NCBI RefSeq assembly: GCF_000158195.2
Contig: NZ_GL987993.1
Location: 213,193 to 273,655, forward strand
DNA from: Fusobacterium mortiferum ATCC 9817
GTDB lineage: Bacteria; Fusobacteriota; Fusobacteriia; Fusobacteriales; Fusobacteriaceae
Length of the DNA stretch: 60,463 nt
Direction: 5' to 3'
A program made the translations under genes and the position numbers. Shown here piece after piece: positions 29,186 to 49,480 of the stretch; the stretch's first letter is position 1, and each line of letters opens with the position of its first letter. Under the pieces are notes generated by a model, which saw only the letters and a program-made list of their open reading frames with translations, had not been told where the DNA came from and made no database searches.

Positions 29186-30040
29186 TTATAACCCTCTGCA
29201 AAGATGTACTTCACAGTGTTGTAATTGCTCCCTTATTGTCTCTACTTTTTCTTTTCCATTTTCTGTAAAAGCATAGTATGCACTTCCACTCCCAGACATA
29301 AAAAATTTCATGTTAGAAATTTTTCCTAATTTTTTTCTAAATTCTATTATATTAGTATCTTCAAGTAAAAGTCCCTGTTCCAAATTATTTTCTATACTCT
29401 CTTCTATTAAAGAAAGCTTATTATCTTCTAATCCCTCAATTATTTTATCTATATTAGCATCTTTTTTATTTTTGAGCATATACATATTTTTATATGCTTT
29501 AGCTGTTGATACTCCAAAATTTGGCTTAATCAAAATAATATCTTTATCCAAATTATTCTCTAATATCTCTATTTTCTCTCCAATACCTTTCACTCTACTA
29601 GGCTTATTGATTATAAAGAAAGGAATATCTGCTCCAACACTTTTTCCTAACTCTATTAACTCATCTAAAGAAAAGAAGTCTTTATGATATTTATTTAATT
29701 CTTTTAAGAAAAAAGCTCCATTAGAACTTCCTCCACCTAGACCAGCTTCATGTGGAATAACTTTTTCTAAATATATTTTTACTCTTTTTTTTGTAAATCC
29801 ACTTCTCTTATAAAATTTATCATATATTTTCCAAAGAATATTTTCTTTTCCAGTTGGAATACTTGGTTTATTAGTAGTAATCTCTAACTCTCCATCCTCT
29901 TCAAATATCTCTCCTTCAAGTTTATCAGTAAGAGATATTGGTATCATTACCATATCCAATAGATGATAGCCATTAGGTAAAACTCCTGTTACATTTAAAC
30001 CAATATTTATTTTAGCATTTGAATTTAAAGAGAATTTCAT
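29186..30040 (-). CDS. ispE: 4-diphosphocytidyl-2-C-methyl-D-erythritol kinase
   Basis: A 284-residue GHMP kinase of the non-mevalonate isoprenoid route that phosphorylates CDP-methylerythritol. The N-terminal substrate region is NAKINIGLNVTGVLPNGYH, and the ATP loop AGLGGGSSNGAF lies near residue 95. A C-terminal MSGSGSAYYAF glycine motif is also present. Its start codon shares a base with the stop of the S4-protein gene, so the two are translationally coupled. Length is normal. Confidence 0.95.
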   Translation of the reverse strand: MKFSLNSNAKINIGLNVTGVLPNGYHLLDMVMIPISLTDKLEGEIFEEDGELEITTNKPSIPTGKENILWKIYDKFYKRSGFTKKRVKIYLEKVIPHEAGLGGGSSNGAFFLKELNKYHKDFFSLDELIELGKSVGADIPFFIINKPSRVKGIGEKIEILENNLDKDIILIKPNFGVSTAKAYKNMYMLKNKKDANIDKIIEGLEDNKLSLIEESIENNLEQGLLLEDTNIIEFRKKLGKISNMKFFMSGSGSAYYAFTENGKEKVETIREQLQHCEVHLCRGL

Positions 30041-31132: not shown

Positions 31133-31149
31133 AGTATCCCTCCATTATA

Positions 31150-32856
31150 TTATTGTTCATATACATTTAAAAACTCCTCGATTGTTCCGTTATACTCTAT
31201 TGTATCATCTTTTTTCTGATATTTTATTAGTCCTTCTTGTATTAGTTTTAATAAAACATCAAAGTTTACCTTATCACTATTAAATTTTATAATAGACTCA
31301 ACTTTTCCTTTTATCTCAAGAGCATTTTTTATTCCTAATTTTTTAGCTCTAAATTTTAAACCTATATATCTAAAAAATCCTTGTGCCTCTACTGGCATTT
31401 TTCCAAATCTATCTATTAATTCATCTTTTATATTTTCTAATTCAATTATACTCTTTACTTCAGTTATTCTTCTATAGACTTTTATTTTTTCATCTTTTTC
31501 TATATATTCATTAGGTATAAACGCTGGATAATTTACTTTTATCTCTATATCATCTATATCCTCTTCAAACCTTCCTTTTATTTTATCTATCTCCTCTTGA
31601 AGCATCTTCATATATAGAGTATACCCAAAAGTTTCCAATATTCCATGTTGCTTTTCTCCTAGTATCTCTCCAGCTCCTCTTATTCTCATATCCTCCATCG
31701 AAAGTTGAAGTCCTCCTCCATCGATCTCTTCAAGATTCTTTATTGATTCTTCTCTTTCTTTAGCTTTCTTTGTTTGATACTCTTTAGTCAGAAGATAACA
31801 ATAACTTTGTCTATTTCCTCTTCCTACTCTCCCTCTCAATTGATATATTTGTGAAAGTCCTAGCTTATCAGCTCTATCTATAATCATAGTATTAGCATTC
31901 TCTATATCTATTCCATTTTCTATAATTGTAGTAGCTACTAATATATCTATCTCTCCATTTTCAAACTCTTTAATTTTTTCTTTTATATCTCTTGGAGTCA
32001 TCTGACCATGTACAAAATCTATTTTTAAATATTCTGGTAAAATTTTTCTCAACTCTTGAGTCTTTTTTTCTATACCCTTTACTGAGTTAAAAATATAAAA
32101 TACCTGTCCCTCTCTTGCTATCTCCTTCATAATAATCTCTCTTATATTTTTTTCAAGCCCTTCAACAAAAAAAGTATTGATAGGTTTTCTTCCCTCTGGC
32201 GGAGTATCTATCACTGATAAATCTCTTATTCCTAAAAGAGCTAAATTTAAAGTTCTTGGTATAGGAGTTGCAGTTAAAGTTAGTACATCTACTTTACTTC
32301 TTAGTTTTTTTAATTTTTCCTTTGCTTTTACTCCAAATTTTTGTTCCTCATCTATAATTACAAGTCTCAAATCCTTAAATTCAACATCTTCTGACAAAAT
32401 TCTATGAGTACCTATTACTATATCTACTCCCCCTTCTTTTATCTTTTTTAAAGTTTGAGTTTGTTCTTTAGAAGTTAATAAACGACTTAATAATTCTATA
32501 TTTATTGGATAATTTTTCATTCTCTCTGTAAATCTCTCATAATGCTGTTGAGCTAGAACTGTAGTAGGAACCATAAGCACCACTTGTTTCCCTTCAATAG
32601 CTGCTTTAAAAGCTGCTCTTATAGCTACCTCTGTTTTCCCATACCCCACATCTCCACATACTACTCTATCCATTATTCTTGAAGATTCCATATCTCTTTT
32701 TACATCTTCAATAGCCTGTAATTGTGAAGGAGTCTCTTTATATGGAAAACTCTCTTCAAATTCCTCCTGCCATAAATTATCTGGAGCAAAAGAATATCCA
32801 GCTTCTAAATCTCTTCTAGCTTGGATTTCTACTATTTCTTTTGCAAATTGTAACAT
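31150..32856 (-). pseudogene. mfd: mfd, C-terminal part (translocase and TRCF domains), out of frame
   Basis: A 568-codon open frame starting at an internal ATG. It holds the helicase/translocase of the transcription-repair coupling factor: Walker A CGDVGYGKTEVA, IIDEEQKFG, TATPIPRT, QLRGRVGRG, and the C-terminal TRCF domain. The coding frame is open further upstream to about 32876, where it reads REKIAEEM and joins the N-terminal half at 32877-32882 if one base is added. As written, the protein cannot be made as one chain. The intact product would be about 980 residues and would remove stalled RNA polymerase and recruit UvrA. Confidence 0.85.
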
Positions 32857-32864
32857 CTCTTCAG

Positions 32865-34103
32865 CTATTTTTTCTCTTTTTTCCTAAAACCTTTTCTTCC
32901 TAAATTATATATTTCTGGTATCTCTCCATCTATTGATATATACTTTCCTATTTTTCCTATTCCCTCTATTGGAACAAAAAGTTTATCCTCTCCAGCATAT
33001 TTAATTTTTAAATAATCATGCCCATCTATTATTTCAATTCCTAGATATAGACCTACTCCATAATTCTCATGTATAATATAGTTTCCTTCTTGTATTTCTG
33101 TTATATTTTTATATCTTTGAAATCCTTTATCCTTTTTTTCTCTTCTTACTCTAATACCTTTTAATTCTCTATCTGTTAGTACAAGAAGATTCTCCTCTTT
33201 ATATCCTTCAAATAATGGATACTTTTCATATTCAAAATTATAACCTTCGAATATCTCTCTGTATCTTTTTTCTTCATCAGATACTATTTTTATTTTTTGT
33301 AATGGATCTTTACCAATTTTTTTTACATACTCTATACTCTCAAAATTTTGAAGTTCCTCGTGAGTAAATTTATTTATTTCAACTGATTTAGCTATTTTTA
33401 AAAAATTATTATATATTCCTTTTATACTCTTTTCTTTAATCTCACTATTAGAAAGAATCTCTTCTAATTTATAATTTAATAAATCTATATTTTCTATAAA
33501 AATTTTTAAATCATTTCTATTATTTAAAAAATCTAAAAAACTATTTTTCTCTTCTATATTATTGTTTATATACATATAAACTTGATTTTTTTTCTCAACA
33601 CTTTTTTGGGTTTCTATATCAAAATATGCTATTCTCTCTACTTCATTATTAAAACTAAACTCAATTCTAACTGGATACTTACTATTTTTAGGAAAAATAT
33701 CTAATATATCTCCTCTCATACTGTACTGATTTCTTTCTTCTACCATATACTCTTTATTATATCCACTCTCTTCTAAAGAATTTTCTAATTCTTTTATATC
33801 CAAACTTTTTCCTATTTCTATCTCATATCTTTTTCCCTCTAAAAAGTATTCTCTTAAAATAGCTTCTAAAGAAAGTAAAATAATAAAATCTTCTTCTGAT
33901 TTTAGAATTTCTAATAAGTCATAATTATCTTTTTCTAATTCATCCTTTGATTGAGTATTCTCTAATTTTAATATATTTCCACCATATATATCACTTAATA
34001 CATTATAATAATCTTCTATATTTCTATTTGAAGAACAAAGATATAGTATTTTTCCTCCTATTTCTTTCAATAAAAAGGGGATTTTTCCTCTATACTCTTT
34101 CAT
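32865..34103 (-). pseudogene. mfd: mfd, N-terminal part, ends early by frameshift
   Basis: The N-terminal 412 codons of Mfd: a UvrB-like damage-recognition module, then the RNA-polymerase-interacting domain (GNYIIHENYGVGLYLGIE). The frame stops at 32865-32867 just after RKGFRKKEKK, where an intact homolog would read on through REKIAEEM. A run of six Ts at 32877-32882 (As in the mRNA) is one base short. The start at 34103 is preferred over 34115 because GGAGG is five bases before it. It may be a sequencing or assembly slip, a true mutation, or expression rescued by polymerase slippage on the A-run. Confidence 0.85.
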
Positions 34104-34181
34104 TTTTTCCTCCATATTTTTCTTTTACCTATATTTTACCCTTTATTTCTTCACTTTGCAAAAATATATTTTAAATAAAAA

Positions 34182-37438: not shown

Positions 37439-38263
37439 ATGAAAATAATAATACTTATAGAAAATGATTTAAGTTGTGATCCAAACTTAGTTAATGAGTT
37501 TGGATTTTCTGTTTTTATCCAAGATGAAGATACTTCTCTCATATTTGATACTGGTCAAAGTGGAATATTTATTAAAAATATTGAAAAACTAAAATTAGAT
37601 ACTAAAAATATTCATACTATAGTACTTAGTCATAATCATTACGATCATGTAGGTGGACTTAAAAATTATATTGAAAAATTTGGAAATAATTTTACTCTTT
37701 ACTTAAATAAAAATTTTTTTGATAAAAGATTTAGTTTTTCAGAACTTTACTCTCGAATCTTAGGAGCTAATTTTTTCCAAGATTACATACTAGATAAAAA
37801 AATTAATTTATCTTTTATTAATGAACATATACATATTCTATCTAAAAATATTACAGCTTTTACAAATTTTGAAAGATTAAACGATTTTGAAGAGATTAAT
37901 CTTTCTTATTACAAGAAAAAAAATTCTACGTTTATTCTTGATAGTATGAGTGATGAAATTGTATTAGGTTTAGATACAAAATTGGGATTTTTTATTCTTT
38001 GTGGTTGCTCACATATTGGAATAGTTAACATTATCAAAAATATTAAAAAATGGACTAATAAAAAAATCGTTGGAATTATTGGGGGCTTACACCTCAGTAA
38101 AAGTAATTCTGAAAGAATTTTAAAAACAATTAATTATCTGAAAAAAGAGGATATAAAATATCTTGCTTTGTCTCATTGTACTGGAAAAAATATTATAAAA
38201 ATTTTTAAAGATTCTGGATTTAATATTCTTCCTACTAATACTGGAAATGTATTAGAATTTTAA
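37439..38263 (+). CDS. Metallo-beta-lactamase-fold hydrolase
   Basis: A 274-residue zinc hydrolase with the HNHYDH motif at residues 65-70, a GCSHIG histidine near 187 and a late LSHCTG histidine. It resembles the MBL proteins annotated as dihydropterin-ribofuranosylaminobenzene phosphate synthase. That name is a family label and the substrate is unknown. Eight bases after the XRE-cupin gene, so co-transcribed. The terminator begins on its stop codon. Confidence 0.85.
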   Translation: MKIIILIENDLSCDPNLVNEFGFSVFIQDEDTSLIFDTGQSGIFIKNIEKLKLDTKNIHTIVLSHNHYDHVGGLKNYIEKFGNNFTLYLNKNFFDKRFSFSELYSRILGANFFQDYILDKKINLSFINEHIHILSKNITAFTNFERLNDFEEINLSYYKKKNSTFILDSMSDEIVLGLDTKLGFFILCGCSHIGIVNIIKNIKKWTNKKIVGIIGGLHLSKSNSERILKTINYLKKEDIKYLALSHCTGKNIIKIFKDSGFNILPTNTGNVLEF

Positions 38264-38298
38264 CATAAAAAGAGAACTATATTGTTCTCTTTTTATGT
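38263..38298. terminator. Bidirectional terminator
   Basis: ACATAAAAAGAGAAC pairs with GTTCTCTTTTTATGT. It terminates both the rightward hydrolase transcript and the leftward rep transcript. Confidence 0.85.
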
Positions 38299-38316
38299 AT
38301 ATAAACAGTAATAATC

Positions 38317-40125
38317 TTAATTTTCCTCTTCTTCTTTCATAACTCTTTCAATATAATCCTTTATTGCTCCAATATAAATTGCCCTTGTCTTAGCCTTCAT
38401 TGCTAATAAGAAATTAATATCAACGCCCATTTCTTTTGAGCAAAGTTCCAATGCTTTCTCTTCTATTTTTAATTTTTCATATTCATCAAAACTTTCAAAC
38501 TCTTCTATCATATCTCTAGGAATATTTGTTTCTTCAACTAAATCTTTTATATTATTTAAAACTGGCTTTTTAACTGTTCTTCTTGCTTGATTAATCAATT
38601 TTTTGCTCTTTAATCCCTTTTCTTTTACAACATTACTAAAAAGAGTTAAATTTTGTTTATTATTTTCTTTATCTGTAATAGAAAGATTCTTTATAATTCC
38701 GTTAATATACTGCACTAAAGTTGTTTTAACATTAGTTGTCAAATTTTTATAGAGTATATTTAAAATTTCCTTTGTTCTTTCTTCTCCCTCTTCTCTATAA
38801 ATCTTCTTAATTTTGGTATCTGTTCTTTTATCCCAAGCTCTCATTACATATATATTTCTCTTAGCTTTCTTTATTCTTTCTAAAATTTCATCTGAAAACT
38901 CAATATTATCCTTACTTTCTTTAATTTTTATCTCTTTTTTAGGAGTTTTTTCTTTAATATTTTTATCTTTAACATTGTCTGCTATAACTTCAATTATTTC
39001 TGCATCTTCAATATCAATATTTCTATCTTTTTTATATCCAATTGAAGCTCTTTCAGCTTTATTTTCTATAAAAGTAGATACATGGCAATCTCCATCTTTT
39101 TCCTTATTGAAAATATAATCTAAATAATAAGTATCTTCACTTTTAACATACTCAGCTTTATAACTTAAAATATATTCTAATTCTACTAATACATCAAAAG
39201 CTTTTTCTACTCTTTTTAATACTTGTTTTAATCTACATAGAACATACTGTTTTACTTCTCCGTTTTTATTAGCTCTTTCTGTTATTTGCTCTGTTTTAAG
39301 AGGAATAACAGCTGCTAATGTTCTTAAATTTATTCTATCTCTATCTTTATCATATCTTATTTTGCTGATATATTTATATATTCTTCCAGCTATTGGATCT
39401 TTTGTTAAAATCTCTAAAAGTGAACGTGAATTATACTTAATATATCTCTTATCTTTTATTTTTTGTCTTATATTTTTATTTAATGTAACTCTATAGAATT
39501 TTTTTCTACCCTTCTCTAACTTTTGATATGTCAATAATTTAAACTCTTCATCTTCAAATTTATAATTCCCAAGTTTTGTATGATTAGATACTACAAATTG
39601 ATACTCTGTATTTTTTAAATTTTTTAAAGCTTGTTCAACTTTAGTATAATAAGTTCTATTCATTTTATTTCCTAAAAAGTTAACAATAAAATCTGAAATT
39701 TCAAACTCTATATAATCATCTGTATTATTCAATTCTTTTTTCAACTCATACATTGAAATTAAATAAGTATATATTTTTTCTTCAAATATAGAAGGTTGAA
39801 ATACTTTATCATTGTTATCTTTAGCTATTAGGGTACAAGACATTGTTACCCCTAAATCCTCAAAAGAATATTGAAAATTTACTCTTTTATTTTGCTTTTG
39901 AGGAGTAAAAAAAGGAAATACAATCATCTCAACAGGAATATTAATAATGTTATCCTTTAAATTTAAAAAATTTCCTGTTTCTTTTATTACAACTTCTTTT
40001 ACTTCTATATCTGGAACTTGATTTAATTTTATTTCTACTTTTTTAATATCTTCAAGTAAAGAACCACTTTTAACAATATTAAAACTATCTAATTCGTCTT
40101 GATTCTCTAAGTTTCCTTTTTTCAT
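38317..40125 (-). CDS. Plasmid-type replication initiator (Rep) at the chromosomal origin
   Basis: A 602-residue protein. Residues about 60-320 resemble plasmid Rep initiators built of two winged-helix domains (RPA / Rep_3 type): an opening VEMIVFPFFTPQKQNKR, EEKIYTYLISMYELKKEL, NRTYYTKVEQALKNL and GRIYKYISKIRYDKDRDRI. Residues about 370-602 are a charged, helical region that I do not recognise. The open frame extends to 40179, but AAAGGAGC is five bases before the ATG at 40125, which is the real start. It is divergent from rpmH and faces seven direct repeats, where dnaA is found in many bacteria. It most likely binds those repeats to start chromosome replication. Family assignment is from memory of motifs and should be tested by structure search. 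Confidence 0.8.
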   Translation of the reverse strand: MKKGNLENQDELDSFNIVKSGSLLEDIKKVEIKLNQVPDIEVKEVVIKETGNFLNLKDNIINIPVEMIVFPFFTPQKQNKRVNFQYSFEDLGVTMSCTLIAKDNNDKVFQPSIFEEKIYTYLISMYELKKELNNTDDYIEFEISDFIVNFLGNKMNRTYYTKVEQALKNLKNTEYQFVVSNHTKLGNYKFEDEEFKLLTYQKLEKGRKKFYRVTLNKNIRQKIKDKRYIKYNSRSLLEILTKDPIAGRIYKYISKIRYDKDRDRINLRTLAAVIPLKTEQITERANKNGEVKQYVLCRLKQVLKRVEKAFDVLVELEYILSYKAEYVKSEDTYYLDYIFNKEKDGDCHVSTFIENKAERASIGYKKDRNIDIEDAEIIEVIADNVKDKNIKEKTPKKEIKIKESKDNIEFSDEILERIKKAKRNIYVMRAWDKRTDTKIKKIYREEGEERTKEILNILYKNLTTNVKTTLVQYINGIIKNLSITDKENNKQNLTLFSNVVKEKGLKSKKLINQARRTVKKPVLNNIKDLVEETNIPRDMIEEFESFDEYEKLKIEEKALELCSKEMGVDINFLLAMKAKTRAIYIGAIKDYIERVMKEEEEN

Positions 40126-40155
40126 AAAAGCTCCTTTATAATTTAACAATATCAA

Positions 40156-40654
40156 TGTATATAATGAATAATATACCATTTTTTATGTATATTGACAATA
40201 ATATTTTTTATTTTTTTTTTAACTTTCATTATTTCTATATTTTTACTTACTTCTTAAATTTATAATAGCTATGAATGCTTTAAATTTCCTATATTTTTCT
40301 ATTGTATATGAACATTAATAACTTTATATTTAATATTTTTTATAAAAAATTAGGAAAACTCTAGTTTTAAATTGTCTATAAACAATAATATTTTTACATA
40401 AACTAGAAAAAATATTCTTTAAATATTTGCTTATAAACAATAATATTATTTTGAATATTAAAATCCTTATTTTATGCAGAGTTATAAAATTATTATTTTT
40501 CTAATACTTGAAAAAATAATAATTCTCCCATTGTCTATTATCAATAATAAAATTATATTATCATAAATACTGATTTTTTCAAAGATAATAAATATTTCTT
40601 CGAAACAATATTCGATAAATACATAACTCTTTTAGTGTATAGTATCAATAATAA
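40156..40654 (+). repeat. Seven direct 19-bp iteron-like repeats
   Basis: All are on the plus strand: 40156 TGTATATAATGAATAATAT; 40186 TGTATATTGACAATAATAT; 40303 TGTATATGAACATTAATAA; 40373 TGTCTATAAACAATAATAT; 40428 TGCTTATAAACAATAATAT; 40532 TGTCTATTATCAATAATAA; 40636 TGTATAGTATCAATAATAA. Bases 1-2, 5-6, 12 and 14-18 are the same in all seven. Start-to-start distances are 30, 117, 70, 55, 104 and 104. Several are near multiples of the DNA turn, as if the sites lie on one face. Same orientation and closeness to a Rep gene are hallmarks of iterons. Confidence 0.85.
40170..40198 (-). promoter_or_regulatory. rep promoter, overlapped by two repeats
   Basis: TTGTCA (40198-40193) and TATATT (40175-40170) are 17 bases apart on the minus strand. 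The -35 lies inside the repeat at 40186-40204 and the -10 overlaps the repeat at 40156-40174. Rep binding would therefore block its own promoter. Confidence 0.75.
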
Positions 40655-40911
40655 ATTTAATTAAATAATTATTCATAAAGTTTGATTTTTCAATGTTAAA
40701 TAAAATTTTAATTTTTAACTTAGTCTATACATAATACAAAAAACAATATACAAAAAACTACTTAATTTTATTTTAAAGGTTTGTTTTATTTTTTTTAATA
40801 TAAATATTCTTTATGTCTTATTCTAGAAATTTATAATAAATACTTGACAAAATCATAAAAATAATATAAAATCTTTATCTGAAATATAGAATTTTTTCGG
40901 AGGTGAAATAG
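40205..40911. other. Probable chromosomal replication origin (oriC)
   Basis: About 700 bases without a gene, between the divergent rep gene and rpmH. It holds five of the seven iteron-like repeats, very AT-rich stretches that could be the unwinding element (40205-40225 and 40680-40840), and the rpmH promoter. Genes for ribosomal protein L34, RNase P protein, YidC, Jag, MnmE and MnmG follow, the block that flanks oriC in many bacteria. Both rRNA operons at the window ends point away from this spot. The closest thing to a DnaA box is TTATGCAGA, with two mismatches. Confidence 0.75.
40844..40872 (+). promoter_or_regulatory. rpmH promoter
   Basis: TTGACA and TAAAAT are separated by exactly 17 bases, about 40 bases before the rpmH start codon. 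Confidence 0.8.
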
Positions 40912-41046
40912 ATGAAAAGAACATACCAACCAAATAAAGCTAAAAGAAAGAAAGATCACGGGTTCAGAGCAAGAATGGCTACTAAAAACGGTAGAAAAGT
41001 ATTAAAAAGAAGAAGAGCTAGAGGTAGAAAAGTATTATCAGCATAG
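40912..41046 (+). CDS. rpmH: 50S ribosomal protein L34
   Basis: A 44-residue basic protein beginning [20 protein letters not shown] and ending GRKVLSA, the full length of bacterial L34. CGGAGGTG is a strong ribosome-binding site eight bases before the ATG. It is the first gene of the conserved origin block and is followed by a terminator-like hairpin that probably raises L34 output relative to rnpA. Confidence 0.98.
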
Positions 41047-41075
41047 AACCCGGTGTTTAATATCACCGGGTTTTT
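41047..41075 (+). terminator. Hairpin after rpmH
   Basis: AACCCGGTG pairs almost perfectly with CACCGGGTT and runs into Ts. It is probably a partial terminator between rpmH and rnpA. Confidence 0.75.
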
Positions 41076-41126
41076 ACAAGAACCTTTTATCAGAAAATAA
41101 AGCATTATTTTAGGAGAACAATAATC

Positions 41127-41465
41127 ATGAATAATTTAAAGAAAAATGGAGAGTTTCAAATAATCTACAATTCGGGAAGAAAAAGTTTTGGTTATTACTC
41201 TCTTATTTTTTTTAAGAAGAATGATAATAATTTGAAAAGATGTGGGTTTGTTGTAAGTAAAAAAACTGGAAATGCCGTTTGTAGAAATAGATTAAAAAGA
41301 CTATTTAGAGAATATTATCGTCAAAATGAAGAATCATTAAAAGATGGGTATGATATTATTTTTGTAGCAAAAAAAACAGCTGGAGAAAAATTTAAATTTT
41401 TAAAATTTGGAGATATAAAAAAAGACTTAGATAAAACTCTAAAAAATGTAAAGTTATTTAAATAG
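41127..41465 (+). CDS. rnpA: Ribonuclease P protein component
   Basis: A 112-residue basic protein that supports the catalytic RNase P RNA in tRNA 5' maturation. The RNR motif [14 protein letters not shown] is near residues 50-63, preceded by [14 protein letters not shown]. Length is typical. Follows rpmH as in most bacteria; yidD begins ten bases later. Confidence 0.96.
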
Positions 41466-41475
41466 GAAATTAAAT

Positions 41476-41703
41476 ATGAAAAAAATTATACTTTTATTAA
41501 TAAAACTTTATCAAAAGTATATATCTATATTTTTAGGAAAAAATTGTCGATTTTATCCTACATGTTCAGCTTATACTTATGAAGCAATAGAAAAATTTGG
41601 GATAATAAAAGGGATTTTTTTAGGAATAAAAAGAATAATTAAATGCCACCCTTTTCATCCTGGAGGATATGATCCAGTACCAGAAAAAAGAGATAAAAAT
41701 TAG
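41476..41703 (+). CDS. yidD: Membrane protein insertion efficiency factor
   Basis: A 75-residue membrane-associated protein with the family motif [15 protein letters not shown] and the ending [13 protein letters not shown]. YidD helps YidC-dependent insertion of inner-membrane proteins. The hydrophobic N-terminus likely forms an amphipathic membrane anchor. It sits between rnpA and yidC with short gaps. Confidence 0.96.
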
Positions 41704-41711
41704 GAGGATTA

Positions 41712-42332
41712 ATGAGTTATATTTATGGTTTATTGAAAGGAGCTATTTCAGCTCTATTACATTTAATGTATAGTTTAACAGGAAATTTTGGAGTAGCTAT
41801 TATACTTGCAACTATTGTTATTAAAATTATTTTACTTCCATTGACCTTAAAACAAGATAAATCTATGAAAAGTATGAAAGTACTACAACCAGAAATAGAA
41901 AAAATTAAGCAACAATATCAAAATGACCCTAAAATGATGAATCAAAAAACTATGGAGTTATATCAAAAACATAAAGTTAATCCAATGGGAGGATGTTTAC
42001 CTCTTTTAATACAGCTTCCTATATTATGGGCATTATTTGGTGTTTTAAGAGACCCTGTAACAGTACCTCAAGATTCAACATTTTTGTGGATGCAACTTGT
42101 TAATCCAGACCCTTATTATATATTACCAATACTAAATGGAGTAGTATCATTTTTACAACAAAAAGTGATGGGATCTTCTGATAATCCTCAAATGAAAAAT
42201 ATGATGTATATGTTTCCTTTAATGATGGTATTTATATCATATAAAATGCCAGCAGGATTACAAATATATTGGTTAGCATCAAGTGTTGCAGCAGTAGTTC
42301 AACAATACTTGATTATGAAAAAAGGAGAATAA
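41712..42332 (+). CDS. yidC: Membrane protein insertase YidC, short form
   Basis: A 206-residue YidC/Oxa1 protein with about five membrane spans. TIVIKIILLPLTLKQDKSM holds the conserved hydrophilic-groove Arg/Lys region, and the NPMGGCLPLLIQLPI segment is typical. The large periplasmic domain of proteobacterial YidC is absent and no lipobox signal is seen, so it resembles the minimal insertase core although Fusobacterium has an outer membrane. Seven bases before jag. Confidence 0.95.
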   Translation: MSYIYGLLKGAISALLHLMYSLTGNFGVAIILATIVIKIILLPLTLKQDKSMKSMKVLQPEIEKIKQQYQNDPKMMNQKTMELYQKHKVNPMGGCLPLLIQLPILWALFGVLRDPVTVPQDSTFLWMQLVNPDPYYILPILNGVVSFLQQKVMGSSDNPQMKNMMYMFPLMMVFISYKMPAGLQIYWLASSVAAVVQQYLIMKKGE

Positions 42333-42338
42333 ACTATT

Positions 42339-43070
42339 ATGAAAAATGTTATAGAAATTAAAGCTATGAGTCAGGAGCAAGCTATAACAAGAGCGTTAAA
42401 AATCATGGAAGCAACTCCTGAGCAAGTAGTTAACGTTATAGAGAAACAAAAAAGTAAATCTTTTTTAGGAATTTTTAATAGGGAAGGAGTTTATGAAATA
42501 GAGATAGATAAAACTCCTAAAGAGAAAAAAGAAAGTAAAATTGAAAAAATCAAAGATATAGAAGTAACTGAAAAGAAAAAAGAACATGTTAAAGAACAAA
42601 CTATTGATATTAAAGAAGTAAAAAAAGATAAAAAGGACATATCTGAAACTATTCAAAAGAAAGCTGAAGAACTCTTAGAAAATATTGGTTTAGTGCTAAA
42701 AGTTGAAGTAGATAGATTAAGTGATAGAAATTATCTTGTTAATTTATATGGAGAAGATAATGGAATTATCATAGGTAAAAAAGGAAAAACTTTAAATAGT
42801 TTTGAATATCTTTTAAATTCAATAATGAAAGATTATAGAATTGAAGTAGATGTAGAGGGATTTAAAGCTAAAAGAACTGAAACACTAAGAGAGTTAGGAA
42901 AAAAAATGGCAGAGAAAGCTTTAAAATCTGGAAAACCAGTTAGACTAAATCCTATGCCACCAAGAGAAAGAAAGATAATACATGAGGTTGTAAATAAGTA
43001 TCAAGAGTTAGATACTTACAGTGAGGGAAGAGATCCTAAGAGATATATTGTTATTAAGAGAAAAAAATAG
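42339..43070 (+). CDS. jag: RNA-binding protein Jag/KhpB
   Basis: A 243-residue cytoplasmic RNA-binding protein with three parts. A Jag-N domain lies at residues 1-52, followed by a long Lys/Glu-rich linker (about 55-105). A KH domain ([19 protein letters not shown] near 143-161) comes next, then an R3H domain ([14 protein letters not shown] near 208). It is encoded after yidC as in many bacteria; the role is RNA binding linked to cell envelope or division. Confidence 0.93.
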
Positions 43071-43080
43071 GGAGGCAATC

Positions 43081-44451
43081 ATGCTTTTTGATACTATAGC
43101 GGCTATTTCAACTCCTCGTGGAGAGGGGGGAATTGGTATTGTAAGAATTTCAGGAAGCGATGCTTTTACAATTCTTAAAAAAATTTTTAAACCAAAGTCT
43201 GGTAAAAAAATAGAGGAATTGAGAAATTTTAGTATAAACTATGGACATATTTATGATGGAGAGCAACTGATTGATGAAGTAATGGTATCTATTATGAAAG
43301 CTCCACATACTTATACAAAAGAGAATATTGTAGAGATAAATTGCCATGGTGGATTTGTAATAACTGAAAAACTTCTTGAAACAGTTTTAAAATATGGAGC
43401 AAGACATGCTGAAATTGGAGAGTTTACAAGAAGAGCTTTTTTAAATGGAAGAATTGATTTAACTCAAGCTGAAGCTATAATAGATATAATTCATGGAAAA
43501 ACAGAAAAATCAGTATCTTTATCATTAAACCAACTTAGAGGGGATTTAAAAGAGCAGATAGAACATCTTAAAAAATTAATTTTAGATGTTGCTGCACATA
43601 TTAATGTTGTTCTTGATTACCCAGAAGAAGGAATAGATGACCCATTACCAGAGAATCTAGTAGGAAACCTTCAAGAGGTAGTTGATACAACAGATAGATT
43701 AATTAAGTCTTATGATAAAGGGAAGATGATTAAAGAGGGAATTAAGACTGCCATAGTAGGAAAACCTAATGTTGGTAAGTCAAGCCTTTTAAATTCAGTT
43801 TTACGTGAGGAGAGAGCTATTGTAACTCATATTCCTGGAACAACTAGAGATGTGATAGAAGAGGTTGTAAATTTAAAAGGAATACCATTGATTTTAGTAG
43901 ATACTGCTGGAATTAGAAAAACTGATGACATTGTAGAAAATATAGGTGTAGAAAAATCTAAAAAAATGATAGAGAATGCTGACCTCATATTATTTGTAAT
44001 AGATGGTTCAAGAGAGCTAGAAGAGGAAGATATAAAAATCCATGAAAGTATAAATTCTGAAAAAGTAATTGGTATCTTAAATAAGATAGATATGGAAAGA
44101 AAGGTAGATTTATCAAAACTAACTAAGATAAAGAATTGGATAGAGATTTCAGCTATGAAAAATATAGGTATTGATGAAATGGAAGATAAAATCTATCATC
44201 ATATAGTAGATGGAAATGTTGAAGATAGTTCTCAAAAGATAACAATTACAAATGTTAGACATAAATCTGCTTTAGAGAAAACGAAACAGTATGTAGAAAA
44301 TATTTTTGATACTATACATGCTGGATTACCAATGGATTTAATGGCTGTTGATATAAAAGGAGCTTTAAATTCCCTTTCAGAAGTAACTGGAGAGATTTCT
44401 AGCGAAGATTTATTAGACCATATTTTTAGCAATTTCTGTGTTGGAAAATAA
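43081..44451 (+). CDS. mnmE: tRNA modification GTPase MnmE
   Basis: A 456-residue GTPase that with MnmG adds the aminomethyl group to U34 of certain tRNAs. The N-terminal folate-binding part is [20 protein letters not shown]. The G domain has [20 protein letters not shown] and NKID, and the C-terminal cysteine motif is [12 protein letters not shown] at 43021 lies inside jag; the ATG at 43081 after GGGAGG is the true start. Confidence 0.97.
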
Positions 44452-44456
44452 AAAAT

Positions 44457-44483
44457 GAGGATGCTCAAATTTGAGTAATCCTC
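44457..44483 (+). terminator. Weak hairpin between mnmE and mnmG
   Basis: GAGGAT pairs with ATCCTC around the perfect palindrome CTCAAATTTGAG, followed by CTTTCTT. It is probably a partial terminator or an RNA-stability element. Confidence 0.45.
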
Positions 44484-44513
44484 TTTCTTAATTTATGGAG
44501 TTAGGAGGAGAAG

Positions 44514-46361
44514 ATGAAAAAAATTTATGATGTAATAGTTGTTGGAGGAGGTCATGCTGGAGTAGAAGCAGCACTTGCTTCAGCTAGACTTGGAAAAGAT
44601 ACAGCTATATTTACACTTTACTTAGATACAATTGCAATGATGTCATGTAACCCTTCAATAGGGGGTCCTGGAAAAAGTAATCTTGTGGCAGAGATGGACA
44701 TCTTAGGTGGAGAGATGGGAAAACATACAGATGAGTTTAATCTTCAATTGAAACATCTAAATGAGAGTAAAGGACCAGCAGCTAGAATAACAAGAGGACA
44801 AGCTGATAAATATCTTTATAGAACAGAGATGAGAAAAAAACTTGAGCATACAGATAATCTTCATATGATTCAAGATTGTGTAGAACAAATTATAGTAGAT
44901 GATGGAGAGATAAAAGGAGTTAGAACAAGACTTGGAATCTCTTATTTTGCTAAAGCTGTTGTACTTTGTACTGGAACTTTCTTAAAAGGAAAGATAGTTA
45001 TAGGAGATGTAATTTATTCTGCTGGAAGACAGGGAGAGCAATCAGCTGAGAAACTTTCAGACTCTCTTAGAGACCATGGAATCCATATAGAGAGATATCA
45101 GACAGCTACACCTCCAAGACTTGATAGAAGAAGTATAGATTTCTCTAAAATGGAGGAATTAAAGGGAGAGGAACACCCTAGATACTTCTCAATTTTTACT
45201 AATAAAGAGAGAAACAATGTAGTTCCTACATGGCTTACACACACAACTGAAAAAACAATTGAAGTGGCTAAAGAGATGTTAAAATACTCTCCAATAGTAA
45301 GTGGAATAATAGAGACTCATGGACCTAGACACTGTCCGTCACTAGATAGAAAAGTACTTAATTTCCCAGATAAAACAAACCATCAAATATTTTTGGAGTT
45401 AGAATCTGCTGATTCTGAAGAAATCTATGTAAATGGTTTAACTACAGCTATGCCACCATTTGCTCAAGAAGCTATGATGAGAACTATAGCTGGACTTGAA
45501 AATGCTAAAATAATGAGACATGGTTATGCTGTAGAGTATGATTATGCTCCAGCTTCTCAATTATATCCAAGTTTAGAAAGTAAAAAAATAGCTGGGCTAT
45601 TTTTTGCTGGGCAGATAAATGGAACATCTGGTTATGAAGAGGCAGCTTGTCAAGGATTTATGGCTGGGGTAAATGCTGCTAGAAAATTAGATGGAAAAGA
45701 ACCTGTTATCATAGATAGAAGTGAGGGATATATAGGAGTTCTTATTGATGATATTATACATAAGAAAACTCCAGAACCATATAGAGTATTACCATCTCGT
45801 TCAGAGTATAGACTTACTTTAAGATTTGATAATGCCTTTATGAGATTGTATGAAAAGGCAAAGGAAATAGGACTTTTATCTAAAGAAAAATTAGAGTATT
45901 TAGAGAATGCTATTAATATTGTAAATAGTGAGATAGAGAGACTTAGAGAGATAAGTGTACCTATGGTTAAAGCTAATGAACTTTTAGAAAAATTAGGTTC
46001 TAATCAAAAATTTGCTAAGGGAATAAAGATAGGAGAACTTTTAAAGGTTAAAGAGGTAACTTATGATAGTCTAAAAGATGTTACTGAGATTGGAGATTAT
46101 CCAGAATTTATTAAAAATCAGATAGAAACTATTATAAAATATGACATCTTTATTCAAAGAGAGAATGAGCAAATAGAGAAGTTTAAAAGATTAGAAGAGA
46201 TGAGAATACCTAAAGATTTTGATTTTTCTACAGTAAAAGGAATCTCTAATATTGCTAGAAGTGGATTAGAAGAGATAAGACCACTATCTATAGGAGAGGC
46301 TTCAAGAATAAGTGGAGTTACAGGAAATGATATAGCTCTATTGATAGGATATTTAAAATAA
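44514..46361 (+). CDS. mnmG: tRNA uridine-5-carboxymethylaminomethyl modification enzyme MnmG
   Basis: A 615-residue FAD/NADH enzyme and partner of MnmE. The N-terminal FAD fold is VVGGGHAGVEAALASARLG. CNPSIGGPGKSNLV holds a catalytic cysteine, and FFAGQINGTSGYEEAA and the C-terminal helical GIGEASRISGVT-like region are present. AGGAGGAG precedes the start. It closes the origin-linked housekeeping block. Confidence 0.97.
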   Translation: MKKIYDVIVVGGGHAGVEAALASARLGKDTAIFTLYLDTIAMMSCNPSIGGPGKSNLVAEMDILGGEMGKHTDEFNLQLKHLNESKGPAARITRGQADKYLYRTEMRKKLEHTDNLHMIQDCVEQIIVDDGEIKGVRTRLGISYFAKAVVLCTGTFLKGKIVIGDVIYSAGRQGEQSAEKLSDSLRDHGIHIERYQTATPPRLDRRSIDFSKMEELKGEEHPRYFSIFTNKERNNVVPTWLTHTTEKTIEVAKEMLKYSPIVSGIIETHGPRHCPSLDRKVLNFPDKTNHQIFLELESADSEEIYVNGLTTAMPPFAQEAMMRTIAGLENAKIMRHGYAVEYDYAPASQLYPSLESKKIAGLFFAGQINGTSGYEEAACQGFMAGVNAARKLDGKEPVIIDRSEGYIGVLIDDIIHKKTPEPYRVLPSRSEYRLTLRFDNAFMRLYEKAKEIGLLSKEKLEYLENAINIVNSEIERLREISVPMVKANELLEKLGSNQKFAKGIKIGELLKVKEVTYDSLKDVTEIGDYPEFIKNQIETIIKYDIFIQRENEQIEKFKRLEEMRIPKDFDFSTVKGISNIARSGLEEIRPLSIGEASRISGVTGNDIALLIGYLK

Positions 46362-46720
46362 TATGTATATAGACAAAAATAAAATAAGCTCAGATTGACT
46401 TTTATTTTAAAGCAAGGTATAATCTAAGGAAATTACGAGAATAAAATTATAGAAGGAAATTAAAATGAATAATGTAAAAATAGATGAGCTAAAAAGAAAA
46501 ATGTGCTCTATACAATTGTCAAGATGAAACATTGTATGGAGCTAAAACTGAAAGTATAAAACTTTCCTATTTCATCAAAAATAGTATTGAAAAGATATAT
46601 TTGAGTATATCAATTTTGTGATGTCTATTTTTGAAGAAAGATTTAAAATTAAAGGCTACAGCAATGTTTTGTTGTGGCTTTTATTTTGCTTAAAAATTAA
46701 GAATAGGAAGGTAATAGATT
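46362..46720 (+). promoter_or_regulatory. Leader region of the MFS exporter with small ORF and hairpins
   Basis: A strong promoter (TTGACT and TATAAT, 17 bases apart, 46395-46423) is followed by AGAAGGA and a 20-codon ORF at 46465-46527 (start MNNVKIDELKRKMCSIQLSR). Its end lies inside a 12-base-pair hairpin, GCTCTATACAAT (46505-46516) with ATTGTATGGAGC (46531-46542), the stop codon in the loop. A second small hairpin is at 46550-46566. The rest to 46700 has no clear gene; broken frames suggest a possible decayed gene. A leader peptide plus hairpin before an exporter recalls drug-responsive attenuation, but this is inference. Confidence 0.5.
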
Positions 46721-47914
46721 ATGAAAAATTGGAAAAAAGTAGCAAAGAAATTTATAGTAGCACAATCAATTTCTTTATTTGGCTCATCAATAGTTCAGTA
46801 TGGAATTATATGGTATTTGACATTGGAAACAGGTTCAGCTAAAATTCTAACATTAACAACATTGTGTGGTTTTTTACCACAAATGTTAATATCATTTTTT
46901 TCAGGAACTTTGATAGATAAATATAATAGAAAATCTATTTTAATAGTTTCAGATAGTATTATAGCAATTTCTACATTTCTTTTAGCAATCTCATTTTTTC
47001 TAGGAGAAAGAAATTATAATCTATTGTTTGTAGTATTAATAATTCGTTCATTTGGAACTGGAGTACAGACTCCAACTGTAAATACTATAATTCCTCAAAT
47101 TGTACCTGAGGAAAAATTATTTAGAGTGAATGGAATATATAGCACTATTTCTTCAGTTATAAATTTTTTATCTCCAGTTATAAGTGGAATAGTATTGAGT
47201 TTAAGCACAATAGAGTTTACTTTAATGATAGATATTATTACAGCAATTATTGGAATTTTAATAACAATAACATTGAATTTAAAACTTTTTTCTAGAGAAG
47301 CTAAGAATAAAAAGAATGATTTTTTTATAGAGTTAAAGTTTGGAATAATGTATATAATCAAAAATAAAAGTTTAAAATACCTTTTTTTATATCAGTTTAT
47401 AATACTGTTTTTAATAAGTCCATCAGCATTTTTAAATCCATTATTAGTGAATAGGACCTTTGGAATGGAGGTTTGGAGGTTTAGTTTTACTGAGATGACA
47501 TATAGTTTTGGAATGATATTGGGAGGAATTTTTATAACTAAATTAAAAAAAGATTTAGGATTGAAAATAACACTTTTATCTGGAATAATGTATGGTTTAT
47601 TTATGGTAGGATTAGGAAGTATGAGATATTTTATTTTGTATCTATTGATTAATACTATGATGGGCTTTACTTCTCCATGTTATTCAACACCAATTATAAC
47701 AACTATTCAAAGGAGAGTAGATAATAGTATTCAGGGAAGAGTTTTTAGTTTTTTACAAATAGTAAATACTTGTTCTTTGCCATTGGGAATGAGTTTTTTC
47801 GGTCCAATAGCTGATATTATAAGAATCCAAGATATATTTGTAATTTCAGGAATATTAGTTATAATTTTATCACTTGTATTTCATATAAAAAATATTTTAA
47901 AAATAGAGAGTTAA
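46721..47914 (+). CDS. MFS exporter (macrolide/multidrug type)
   Basis: A 397-residue major-facilitator protein with 12 predicted spans of the drug:H+ antiporter or MefA-like kind. The loop motif GTLIDKYNRKSILIVSD (residues about 61-77) is the conserved MFS motif A. AGGAAGGT lies before the ATG. Nine bases separate it from the downstream ABC-F gene, so both are probably co-transcribed. Exporter plus ABC-F is a common antibiotic-related pairing (as in mef-msr), though neither function is proved here. Confidence 0.85.
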   Translation: MKNWKKVAKKFIVAQSISLFGSSIVQYGIIWYLTLETGSAKILTLTTLCGFLPQMLISFFSGTLIDKYNRKSILIVSDSIIAISTFLLAISFFLGERNYNLLFVVLIIRSFGTGVQTPTVNTIIPQIVPEEKLFRVNGIYSTISSVINFLSPVISGIVLSLSTIEFTLMIDIITAIIGILITITLNLKLFSREAKNKKNDFFIELKFGIMYIIKNKSLKYLFLYQFIILFLISPSAFLNPLLVNRTFGMEVWRFSFTEMTYSFGMILGGIFITKLKKDLGLKITLLSGIMYGLFMVGLGSMRYFILYLLINTMMGFTSPCYSTPIITTIQRRVDNSIQGRVFSFLQIVNTCSLPLGMSFFGPIADIIRIQDIFVISGILVIILSLVFHIKNILKIES

Positions 47915-47923
47915 GGAGAGGAT

Positions 47924-49480
47924 ATGAGTATATTAGATGTAAAAAATGTCAGCCATGGTTTTGGTTCTAGAGTAATATTAGAAGATGCTTCTTTTAGACT
48001 TTTAAAAGGAGAACATATAGGACTTGTAGGAGCTAATGGAGAGGGAAAAACAACATTTTTAAATATAATTACTGGGAATCTTATGCCAGATGAGGGAACA
48101 GTTACTTGGTGTAATCATATTACTACTGGCTATTTAGACCAATATAGTACTTTAGAAAAAGGAAAAACTATTAGAGATATTTTAAAGTCAGCTTTTAATC
48201 ATATGTTTGAATTAGAACAAGAGATGATGGGATTATATGAAAAAATGGGAGATTGTACTCCTGAAGAGATGGATGCTCTTATGGAAGAGGTAGGAGAGAT
48301 TCAAAGTATCTTAGACAGTGGAGATTTTTACTCTTTAGATTCTAAAATAGAAGAGTATGCTAAAGGACTTGGGCTTATGGATATAGGTCTTGAAAGAGAT
48401 GTATCAGAACTTTCTGGAGGACAGAGAGCTAAGATATTACTAGCTAAAGTTTTATTAGAAAATCCAATGATATTAATATTAGATGAGCCTACAAACTTTT
48501 TAGATGAAAATCATATAGAGTGGTTAAAGAACTTCTTACAAAATTATGAGAATGCTTTTATATTAGTATCACATGATATTCCATTTTTAAACTCTGTTGT
48601 AAATGTTATTTATCATGTGGAGAATGCTGTATTGACTCGTTATACTGGAGATTACTATCAATTTAGAGAGATGTATGAATTAAAGAAAAGACAATTAGAG
48701 CAAGCATATAAAAAACAACAGAAAGAGATAGAGCATCTAAAAGATTTTATAGCTCGTAATAAAGCTAGAGTTGCTACTACAAACCTTGCTAAAGATAGGC
48801 AAAGAAAACTGGATAGAATGGAGATTATAGAAATAGCTAAGGAAAAACCAAAACCAACTTTTGGATTTAGTTCAGCTAGAACTCCAAGTAGAGAAGTTAT
48901 AACAGTAAAAGATTTAGTTATTGGATATAATGACCCTCTTACAAAACCTCTTAACTTTACTATTGAAAGAAATCAAAAAATAGCTATTAAAGGTGTAAAT
49001 GGACTTGGAAAATCTACTCTATTAAAAACTTTATTAGGAAAGATAAAACCTATATCTGGAGAAATAGAACATGGACAATTTTTAGAAATTGGATATTTTG
49101 AACAAGAGGAAAAAGCAGGAAATACTACTACAGCTTTAGATGAGATATGGAATGAGTTTCCAAGTATGACTAATGCTGAAGTAAGAGCTGCTCTTGCTAA
49201 ATGTGGTTTAACTACTAATCATATAACAAGTCAGATGCAAGTATTATCTGGAGGAGAAAATGCTAAGGTACGTCTATGTAAACTTATGCTTAGAGAGATT
49301 AATTTGCTTGTTTTAGACGAACCAACTAATCACTTGGATATAGATGCCAAAGAAGAGCTAAAAAGAGCTTTAAAAGAGTTTAAAGGAACAATAGTATTAG
49401 TTAGTCACGAGCCAGATTTTTATATGGATGTAGTAACAGAAGTTTGGAATGTAGAAGATTGGACAACAAAAATAGTATAA
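47924..49480 (+). CDS. ABC-F family ATPase (YbiT/YkpA-like)
   Basis: A 518-residue soluble protein with two ABC ATPase domains and no membrane part, acting on ribosomes. First domain: GANGEGKTTF, LSGGQRAKILLAK and LDEPTNFLDE. A linker of about 80 residues (roughly 240-320) is rich in Lys/Arg and corresponds to the P-site tRNA-interaction motif. Second domain: GVNGLGKSTL, LSGGENAKVRLCK and LDEPTNHLD. Length and linker fit the general YbiT/YkpA group more than dedicated resistance factors, but its pairing with the MFS exporter leaves antibiotic protection open. Confidence 0.92.
   Translation: MSILDVKNVSHGFGSRVILEDASFRLLKGEHIGLVGANGEGKTTFLNIITGNLMPDEGTVTWCNHITTGYLDQYSTLEKGKTIRDILKSAFNHMFELEQEMMGLYEKMGDCTPEEMDALMEEVGEIQSILDSGDFYSLDSKIEEYAKGLGLMDIGLERDVSELSGGQRAKILLAKVLLENPMILILDEPTNFLDENHIEWLKNFLQNYENAFILVSHDIPFLNSVVNVIYHVENAVLTRYTGDYYQFREMYELKKRQLEQAYKKQQKEIEHLKDFIARNKARVATTNLAKDRQRKLDRMEIIEIAKEKPKPTFGFSSARTPSREVITVKDLVIGYNDPLTKPLNFTIERNQKIAIKGVNGLGKSTLLKTLLGKIKPISGEIEHGQFLEIGYFEQEEKAGNTTTALDEIWNEFPSMTNAEVRAALAKCGLTTNHITSQMQVLSGGENAKVRLCKLMLREINLLVLDEPTNHLDIDAKEELKRALKEFKGTIVLVSHEPDFYMDVVTEVWNVEDWTTKIV

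What the first reader, a model, noticed from the sequence alone, without database searches (positions are those of the whole stretch)
38317..40911. Chromosomal origin that appears to use a plasmid-type Rep protein and iterons instead of dnaA and DnaA boxes
Seen: a gene-free AT-rich stretch of about 700 bases with seven direct 19-bp repeats, beside a divergent 602-residue Rep-like initiator and next to rpmH-rnpA-yidD-yidC-jag-mnmE-mnmG. Known: that block flanks oriC and dnaA in many bacteria, while iterons plus a winged-helix Rep are the plan of plasmids and of Vibrio chromosome II. Inferred: this fusobacterial main chromosome starts replication from an iteron origin captured from a plasmid. 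No good DnaA box was found by eye. The outward direction of the two rRNA operons fits replication diverging from here.
Basis: partly seen in the sequence, partly recalled or inferred. Interest (0 to 1): 0.92.

Follow-up and report, generated by a model that had tools for sequence, protein, structure and literature searches.

The report
Chromosome origin running without DnaA
The bacterial family Fusobacteriaceae (which includes Fusobacterium nucleatum) appears to have lost DnaA, the near-universal starter protein of bacterial chromosome replication, and to start its main chromosome with a plasmid-type Rep protein and repeat array sitting exactly where dnaA used to be.

Summary
The window has a 786-bp, 85% AT gap with seven co-oriented 18-bp repeats (TGTMTATNNNCAATAATA) between a 602-residue Rep and rpmH. 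No DnaA passes the curated cut-offs in this 99.9%-complete genome or in any of 61 Fusobacteriaceae genomes; 36 of 37 other Fusobacteriota have it. The Rep is nearly the mirror image: a chromosomal-type copy in 57 of 61 Fusobacteriaceae, none on chromosomes elsewhere (dnaA+ Haliovirga has a homolog on a 298-kb plasmid). In dnaA+ outgroups the order is rpmH <-> dnaA-S4-recF-dciA-gyrB-gyrA; in many Fusobacteriaceae it is rpmH <-> Rep-S4-recF-dciA-gyrB-gyrA, so Rep replaced dnaA in place. GC skew flips at this gap, genome-wide in four sampled chromosomes and locally in every genus checked. The repeats are conserved family-wide, mostly 104-105 bp apart (about ten helical turns); extra copies cluster around the origin. 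The Rep core folds like RctB domains 2-3 and RepE/pi. Fifty-three chromosomal Reps form one clade apart from plasmid paralogs. I found no report of this in the searchable literature. Initiation itself is inferred, not shown; marker-frequency and Rep-binding experiments would settle it.

The parts
38317..40125 (-). Rep initiator gene, 602 aa: winged-helix core about residues 62-345, low-confidence linker 353-407, helical C-terminal part 410-602
   Evidence: ORF; SD AAGGAG; PF10134 E 5.5e-6, just under cut-off; AF2 model and fold match to RctB, RepE and pi
40126..40911 (.). Proposed chromosomal replication origin, gene-free, 85% AT
   Evidence: Seven iterons, GC-skew minimum 40879, no DnaA box
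40156..40173 (+). iteron 1 (1 mismatch), next to the Rep start
40186..40203 (+). iteron 2 (perfect)
40303..40320 (+). iteron 3 (1 mismatch)
40373..40390 (+). iteron 4 (perfect)
40428..40445 (+). iteron 5 (2 mismatches)
40532..40549 (+). iteron 6 (perfect); 104 bp from its neighbours 5 and 7
40636..40653 (+). iteron 7 (1 mismatch)
40654..40850 (.). AT-rich stretch (about 88% AT) between last iteron and rpmH; candidate unwinding element, position inferred
   Evidence: stability scan; skew minimum at 40879
38296..38313 (+). isolated iteron just past the Rep stop codon; also present at the Rep 3' end in G025, G026 and G019
33557..33574 (-). dispersed perfect iteron inside the mfd N-terminal ORF
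31148..31165 (-). dispersed perfect iteron at the end of the mfd C-terminal ORF
29467..29484 (-). dispersed iteron, 1 mismatch, in ispE-like ORF
37816..37833 (-). dispersed iteron, 1 mismatch, in metallo-beta-lactamase-like ORF
46364..46381 (+). dispersed iteron, 1 mismatch, just past mnmG
47349..47366 (+). dispersed iteron, 1 mismatch, in transporter ORF
40912..46361 (+). rpmH-rnpA-yidD-yidC-jag-mnmE-mnmG, the classical dnaA/oriC neighbour block

Best explanation
This is the replication origin (oriC equivalent) of a Fusobacterium chromosome whose lineage has lost dnaA. A plasmid-type, two-winged-helix Rep, encoded beside the origin, binds the seven iterons. It melts the AT-rich stretch towards rpmH and, probably with DciA, loads the replicative helicase for bidirectional replication. 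An ancestral Fusobacteriaceae chromosome took the Rep and iterons from a plasmid replicon, and they replaced dnaA in place, upstream of S4-recF-dciA-gyrB-gyrA; the block later broke up in some lineages, this one included. Iterons next to the Rep start probably give autoregulation. The cluster of extra iterons within tens of kb probably titrates or handcuffs Rep to limit re-initiation, as incA does in plasmids. Shown by sequence: absence of DnaA, presence of Rep, in-place swap, iteron conservation and spacing, skew switch, predicted fold, single clade. Inferred: binding, melting, helicase loading, autoregulation, titration.
For: DnaA C-terminal domain (PF08299): 0/61 Fusobacteriaceae against 36/37 others, with controls ringing. 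Full DnaA model (TIGR00362): 0/61 over cut-off. The weak AAA+ hits read in the own genome are short, DnaC-like and beside phage-like genes. Rep in 59/61 Fusobacteriaceae by any match, 57 with a clear chromosomal-type copy, and on no dnaA+ chromosome. In-place swap of dnaA by Rep. Iterons in every Rep upstream region scanned, 3-10 copies, nearly all co-oriented, spacing mode 104-105 bp. dnaA+ origins carry 3-4 DnaA boxes (one of four carries none) and 0 iterons; Rep origins carry 0-1 boxes and 3-9 iterons. Genome-scale skew flips at Rep in G016, G025, G037 and F. vincentii SB055, minimum 96,072 between rpmH and Rep. Local minimum in the same gap in 12 genomes. Fold: RctB Z 15.8, RepE about 11.6, pi 11.1. 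Chromosomal clade 100/99. Iteron clustering near ori, P 1e-6 to 2e-16 at 50 kb.
Against: No experiment shows initiation here or Rep-iteron binding. GC skew also follows gene strand, and one arm of F. vincentii and of G025 is noisy. Two draft Fusobacteriaceae genomes (G039, 93%; G045, 70%) show no Rep at all, G060 only a plasmid-type copy and G051 only a fragment. Iteron spacing is unlike classical 20-22 bp arrays. The C-terminal part has no recognisable fold.
Confidence: 0.9

Rival explanations
1. The locus is the old oriC and replication starts here, but Rep is a regulator or relic; initiation is done by another factor (for example a DnaC-like AAA+ protein, or PriA/recombination-dependent initiation as one might propose for DnaA-free bacteria).
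For: The region keeps the ancestral oriC position. DnaA-free bacteria with other initiation modes exist (PMC7198777). Phage-type DnaC-like genes are common in these genomes.
Against: DnaA-free cyanobacteria have irregular skew and often multiple origins (PMC7198777), whereas skew here flips sharply at one place. No other candidate was seen to co-distribute with the loss. Rep with iterons is conserved as a pair across all genera, and the Rep fold is that of an initiator. DnaC-like hits sit at scattered places and are missing above threshold in 30 of 61 genomes.
Confidence: 0.05
2. An integrated plasmid or dormant plasmid replicon happens to lie beside oriC; the real initiator is a very divergent DnaA that models miss.
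For: A 2007 F. [quoted passage not shown]
Against: Three DnaA models find nothing over cut-off or only DnaC-like proteins. The gene directly upstream of recF is the small S4-domain ORF in every locus read, and the ORF beyond it is Rep or an unrelated gene. DnaA boxes are absent from the gap. The Rep is vertically inherited family-wide, which a chance integrant would not be.
Confidence: 0.03
3. Ordinary: an iteron plasmid or chromid was mis-binned or mis-assembled as chromosome.
For: PLSDB lists a 2.1-Mb F. vincentii replicon carrying this Rep as a plasmid, and the window's scaffold has N gaps.
Against: In the window, without gaps, Rep lies beside rpmH-rnpA-yidD-yidC-jag-mnmE-mnmG and between two rRNA operons; in single-contig chromosomes of 1.7-3.8 Mb the same neighbourhood holds.
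Confidence: 0.01

Closest known systems
RctB / ori2 of Vibrio chromosome II
   Same: Best fold match (domains 2-3, Z 15.8, rmsd 4.5 over 242 residues); large plasmid-derived initiator driving a chromosome-size replicon through repeats beside its own gene.
   Different: Vibrio keeps DnaA for chromosome I; here no DnaA was found in the cell and the main chromosome is driven. No GATC in the window origin, whereas ori2 activity needs Dam methylation (PMC6284228). Repeat sequence and spacing differ.
RepE (mini-F), pi (R6K), RepA (pPS10) iteron plasmids
   Same: Two winged-helix core (Z about 11-12; 8.2 for the RepA N-domain); multiple co-oriented iterons next to the rep gene.
   Different: Twice the length with an extra C-terminal part; iterons mostly 104-105 bp apart instead of about 20-22 bp (general knowledge); no DnaA boxes; no Pfam Rep_3 hit.
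PF10134 RPA (Replication initiator protein A)
   Same: Main profile family matched: 24 of 38 relatives at E<=0.01, best 6.8e-9.
   Different: The window protein scores 26.6 against a cut-off of 27.
DnaA-free free-living cyanobacteria
   Same: dnaA lost in free-living bacteria (PMC7198777).
   Different: There irregular skew or multiple origins and no known replacement initiator; here one sharp origin with a clear replacement candidate.
Natural single-chromosome Vibrio cholerae strains NSCV1/NSCV2
   Same: A plasmid-type origin on a main chromosome (PMC6284228).
   Different: ori1 with its DnaA boxes remains and stays active; strain-level, not family-level.

Membership tests
DnaA/oriC chromosomal origin | dnaA gene in the genome | tested here: not met
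   0/61 Fusobacteriaceae with PF08299 or over the TIGR00362 cut-off
DnaA/oriC chromosomal origin | cluster of DnaA boxes | tested here: not met
   0 boxes at <=1 mismatch in the gap; three of four dnaA+ outgroup origins have 3-4
DnaA/oriC chromosomal origin | oriC gene neighbourhood and skew switch | tested here: met
Iteron-Rep replicon (RepE/pi/RctB type) | initiator with two winged-helix domains | tested here: met
   predicted model: Z 15.8 to RctB, about 11.6 to RepE over about 200 residues
Iteron-Rep replicon (RepE/pi/RctB type) | several direct repeats beside the rep gene | tested here: met
   7 copies, shuffles 0.1; conserved family-wide
Iteron-Rep replicon (RepE/pi/RctB type) | repeats about two helical turns apart (20-22 bp), as in classical plasmid arrays | tested here: not met
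   mode 104-105 bp; this fails classical plasmid iteron arrays, not the wider working plan
Iteron-Rep replicon (RepE/pi/RctB type) | Rep binds the repeats and opens the origin | not testable with these tools
   needs purified protein
Iteron-Rep replicon (RepE/pi/RctB type) | Rep represses its own promoter | not tested
   iterons 1-2 lie 31-78 bp from the start codon; suggestive only
PF10134 RPA family | score over the curated cut-off | tested here: inconclusive
   26.6 against 27 bits; 24/38 relatives match at E<=0.01
RctB/ori2 (Vibrio chromosome II) | Dam GATC sites in the origin | tested here: not met
   0 GATC in 40126-40911; >=3 in only 2 of 53 family origins
RctB/ori2 (Vibrio chromosome II) | crtS-type trigger site on another chromosome | not tested
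   -

The most novel reading that the evidence does not exclude
A whole family of free-living and host-associated bacteria replaced DnaA, in its own operon slot, by a plasmid Rep protein whose iterons are set about ten helical turns apart and are backed by a halo of titration sites over tens to about 100 kb. This would be a second, independent natural solution to starting and timing a main bacterial chromosome; in Ilyobacter both chromosomes and the plasmid would then run on paralogs of one Rep family without any DnaA.
Probability: 0.8. Interest if true: 0.95.

Novelty: new variant of a known kind. Interest (0 to 1): 0.93.

Why it matters
DnaA is treated as the near-universal bacterial initiator, as a drug target and as the coordinate zero of genomes. 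A family that includes F. nucleatum and F. mortiferum without it would be, to my knowledge, the first free-living family whose main chromosome is started by a plasmid-type Rep. It makes a fixed, natural case of integrative suppression testable, asks how once-per-cycle control works without ATP-DnaA, and may explain mis-set genome starts and a 2.1-Mb F. vincentii replicon deposited as a plasmid. Rep would be a family-specific target, and the 786-bp gap plus Rep a basis for laboratory vectors.

Tried and rejected
Mis-binned plasmid: rejected by single-contig chromosomes. Hidden divergent DnaA: rejected by three profile models and by reading the recF neighbourhood. Origin upstream of recF away from Rep, as guessed in 2007: in F. 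vincentii SB055, where recF sits next to Rep, the skew minimum is on the rpmH side of Rep. De novo 19-mer counting with 5 mismatches was swamped by AT-rich low complexity and gave nothing usable; the fixed consensus with shuffles worked. Solved-structure search by sequence gave only chance winged-helix hits (Ets, cullin). NCBIfam and PHROGs: nothing useful. C-terminal part: no fold match over Z 8, so its role in helicase loading is untested. Strict 10.5-bp phasing of all spacings was not distinguished from neighbouring periods; only the 104-105 bp mode is clear. Literature searches found no report of DnaA absence in Fusobacteriaceae; most papers of subscription journals are not covered.

Full report
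What is in the window. The stretch 38317-40911 holds a 602-residue ORF on the minus strand, with AAGGAG eight bases before its ATG, and a 786-bp gene-free, 85% AT gap that ends at rpmH. Seven copies of TGTMTATNNNCAATAATA lie in the gap, all on the plus strand. The window holds 13 sites at up to one mismatch against 0.07 expected, and none of 100 shuffles reached 13. DnaA boxes are at chance in the window and absent from the gap. The cumulative GC-skew minimum of the window is at 40,879. The rpmH-to-mnmG block follows on the plus strand, and 16S genes point outward at both ends of the window.

No DnaA. PF00308 finds only three weak hits in this 99.9%-complete genome; they are 261-288 residue DnaC-like proteins beside phage-like genes. 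PF08299 finds DnaA in 36 of 37 non-Fusobacteriaceae Fusobacteriota and in 0 of 61 Fusobacteriaceae (Fisher P 5e-26, which does not correct for shared ancestry). TIGR00362 gives 0 of 61 over its cut-off, with controls ringing.

Rep takes its place. The window Rep matches 59 of 61 Fusobacteriaceae by sequence and by profile. My count of clear chromosomal-type copies is 57; G051 has a fragment, G060 only a plasmid-type copy, G039 and G045 nothing, all of them drafts. The one hit outside the family is Haliovirga abyssi, which keeps dnaA on the chromosome and carries the Rep homolog, next to parA-parB, on its 297,551-bp plasmid.

In-place replacement. In four dnaA+ outgroups the order is mnmG-mnmE-jag-yidC-yidD-rnpA-rpmH, divergent from dnaA-S4-recF-dciA-gyrB-gyrA, with a few genes not detected in two of them. 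In Fusobacteriaceae genera g2, g6, g7, g8, g9 and g11, Rep stands where dnaA stood, on the same strand. The same is seen in F. vincentii SB055, and Rep lies beside recF in two close relatives of the window genome, G025 and G026. In the window's own assembly recF is about 130 kb away on a gapped scaffold, so that distance is uncertain.

Skew. Sampled 20-kb pieces of single-contig chromosomes G016, G025 and G037 change sign at Rep. F. vincentii SB055 has its minimum (within the first 147 kb read) at 96,072, between rpmH (its start at 96,038) and Rep (starts 96,677), and pieces sampled around the rest of the replicon are positive to the right and mostly negative to the left. The local minimum falls in the rep-rpmH gap in all 12 Rep genomes tested and in the dnaA-rpmH gap of three outgroups. 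Gene orientation contributes to local skew, and some arms are noisy, so this is support rather than proof.

The iterons. They occur upstream of Rep in every genus tested, 3-10 copies, almost all in one orientation, against about one or fewer on average in shuffles. Neighbouring copies are most often 104 or 105 bp apart, near ten helical turns. The dnaA+ origins instead show 3-4 DnaA boxes in three of four cases, and no iterons. Plasmid paralogs carry their own repeats, visibly different in sequence, ahead of their rep genes (read by eye). Extra chromosomal copies cluster near the origin: in single-contig G025, 16 of 34 non-origin sites lie within 50 kb (expected 1); in G026, 11 of 35. One copy lies just past the Rep stop codon in several species. 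Some dispersed copies are inside genes, so part of their conservation may be coding. I read them as titration or handcuffing sites; this is inference.

The protein. The AlphaFold2 model has mean pLDDT 71. Residues 62-345 match RctB domains 2-3 (Z 15.8), RepE (about 11.6) and pi (11.1). The C-terminal 200 residues have no clear match. In a maximum-likelihood tree 53 chromosomal Reps sit on one side of a branch with support 100/99 and 10 plasmid paralogs on the other; the long plasmid branches make their internal order unsure, and the root is not fixed. This fits one acquisition at the base of the family. In Ilyobacter polytropus the chromosome, the 961-kb second chromosome and the 124-kb plasmid each carry a member.

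How it most likely works. Rep binds the iterons, opens the AT-rich stretch near rpmH and helps load the helicase. DciA, in the operon next to recF, is a candidate partner (DciA as helicase operator, PMC5109545). Iterons near the Rep start suggest autoregulation. These steps are inferred by analogy with RepE, pi and RctB.

Known or not. Full-text searches found no report that Fusobacteriaceae lack DnaA or use a Rep. The 2007 F. [quoted passage not shown] NCBI calls two of the plasmid relatives hypothetical proteins. Known relatives in function are Vibrio chromosome II, iteron plasmids and DnaA-free cyanobacteria; each lacks at least one of the three features seen here together: main chromosome, no DnaA, Rep with iterons.

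Noticed in passing
NZ_CP084075.1 (L241-L253): The 2.1-Mb F. vincentii SB055 replicon is deposited as plasmid pSB055A though it carries rpmH-mnmG, gyrAB, recF and this Rep: evidently the chromosome.
   Followed up: yes
G041 C1, C2, C3 (Ilyobacter polytropus): Both chromosomes and the plasmid carry paralogs of one Rep family, with different repeats, and no DnaA was found in the genome.
   Followed up: partly
window 31150-34115: mfd is split into two ORFs 8 bases apart (568 and 416 aa): frameshift, pseudogene or sequence error.
   Followed up: no
G000:C7 scaffold: Scaffold with 100-N gaps on both sides of the window; GC skew of C7:1-213 kb is opposite to the left part of the window, suggesting a wrong join or an rRNA-mediated inversion.
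   Followed up: partly
window 46496-46542: uup RNA (RF03060) upstream of the transporter gene at 46721, with an ABC-F type ATPase gene at 47924.
   Followed up: no
L237 and L172 (pILYOP02): About ten TTCTCCGNAAGTGTGATG-like direct repeats ahead of the plasmid rep gene, roughly 50-70 bp apart.
   Followed up: no
L230 (G054), L229 (G050), L232 (G017): The recF-gyrBA block is not next to Rep in several lineages, so the old dnaA operon seems to have broken up repeatedly after the swap.
   Followed up: partly
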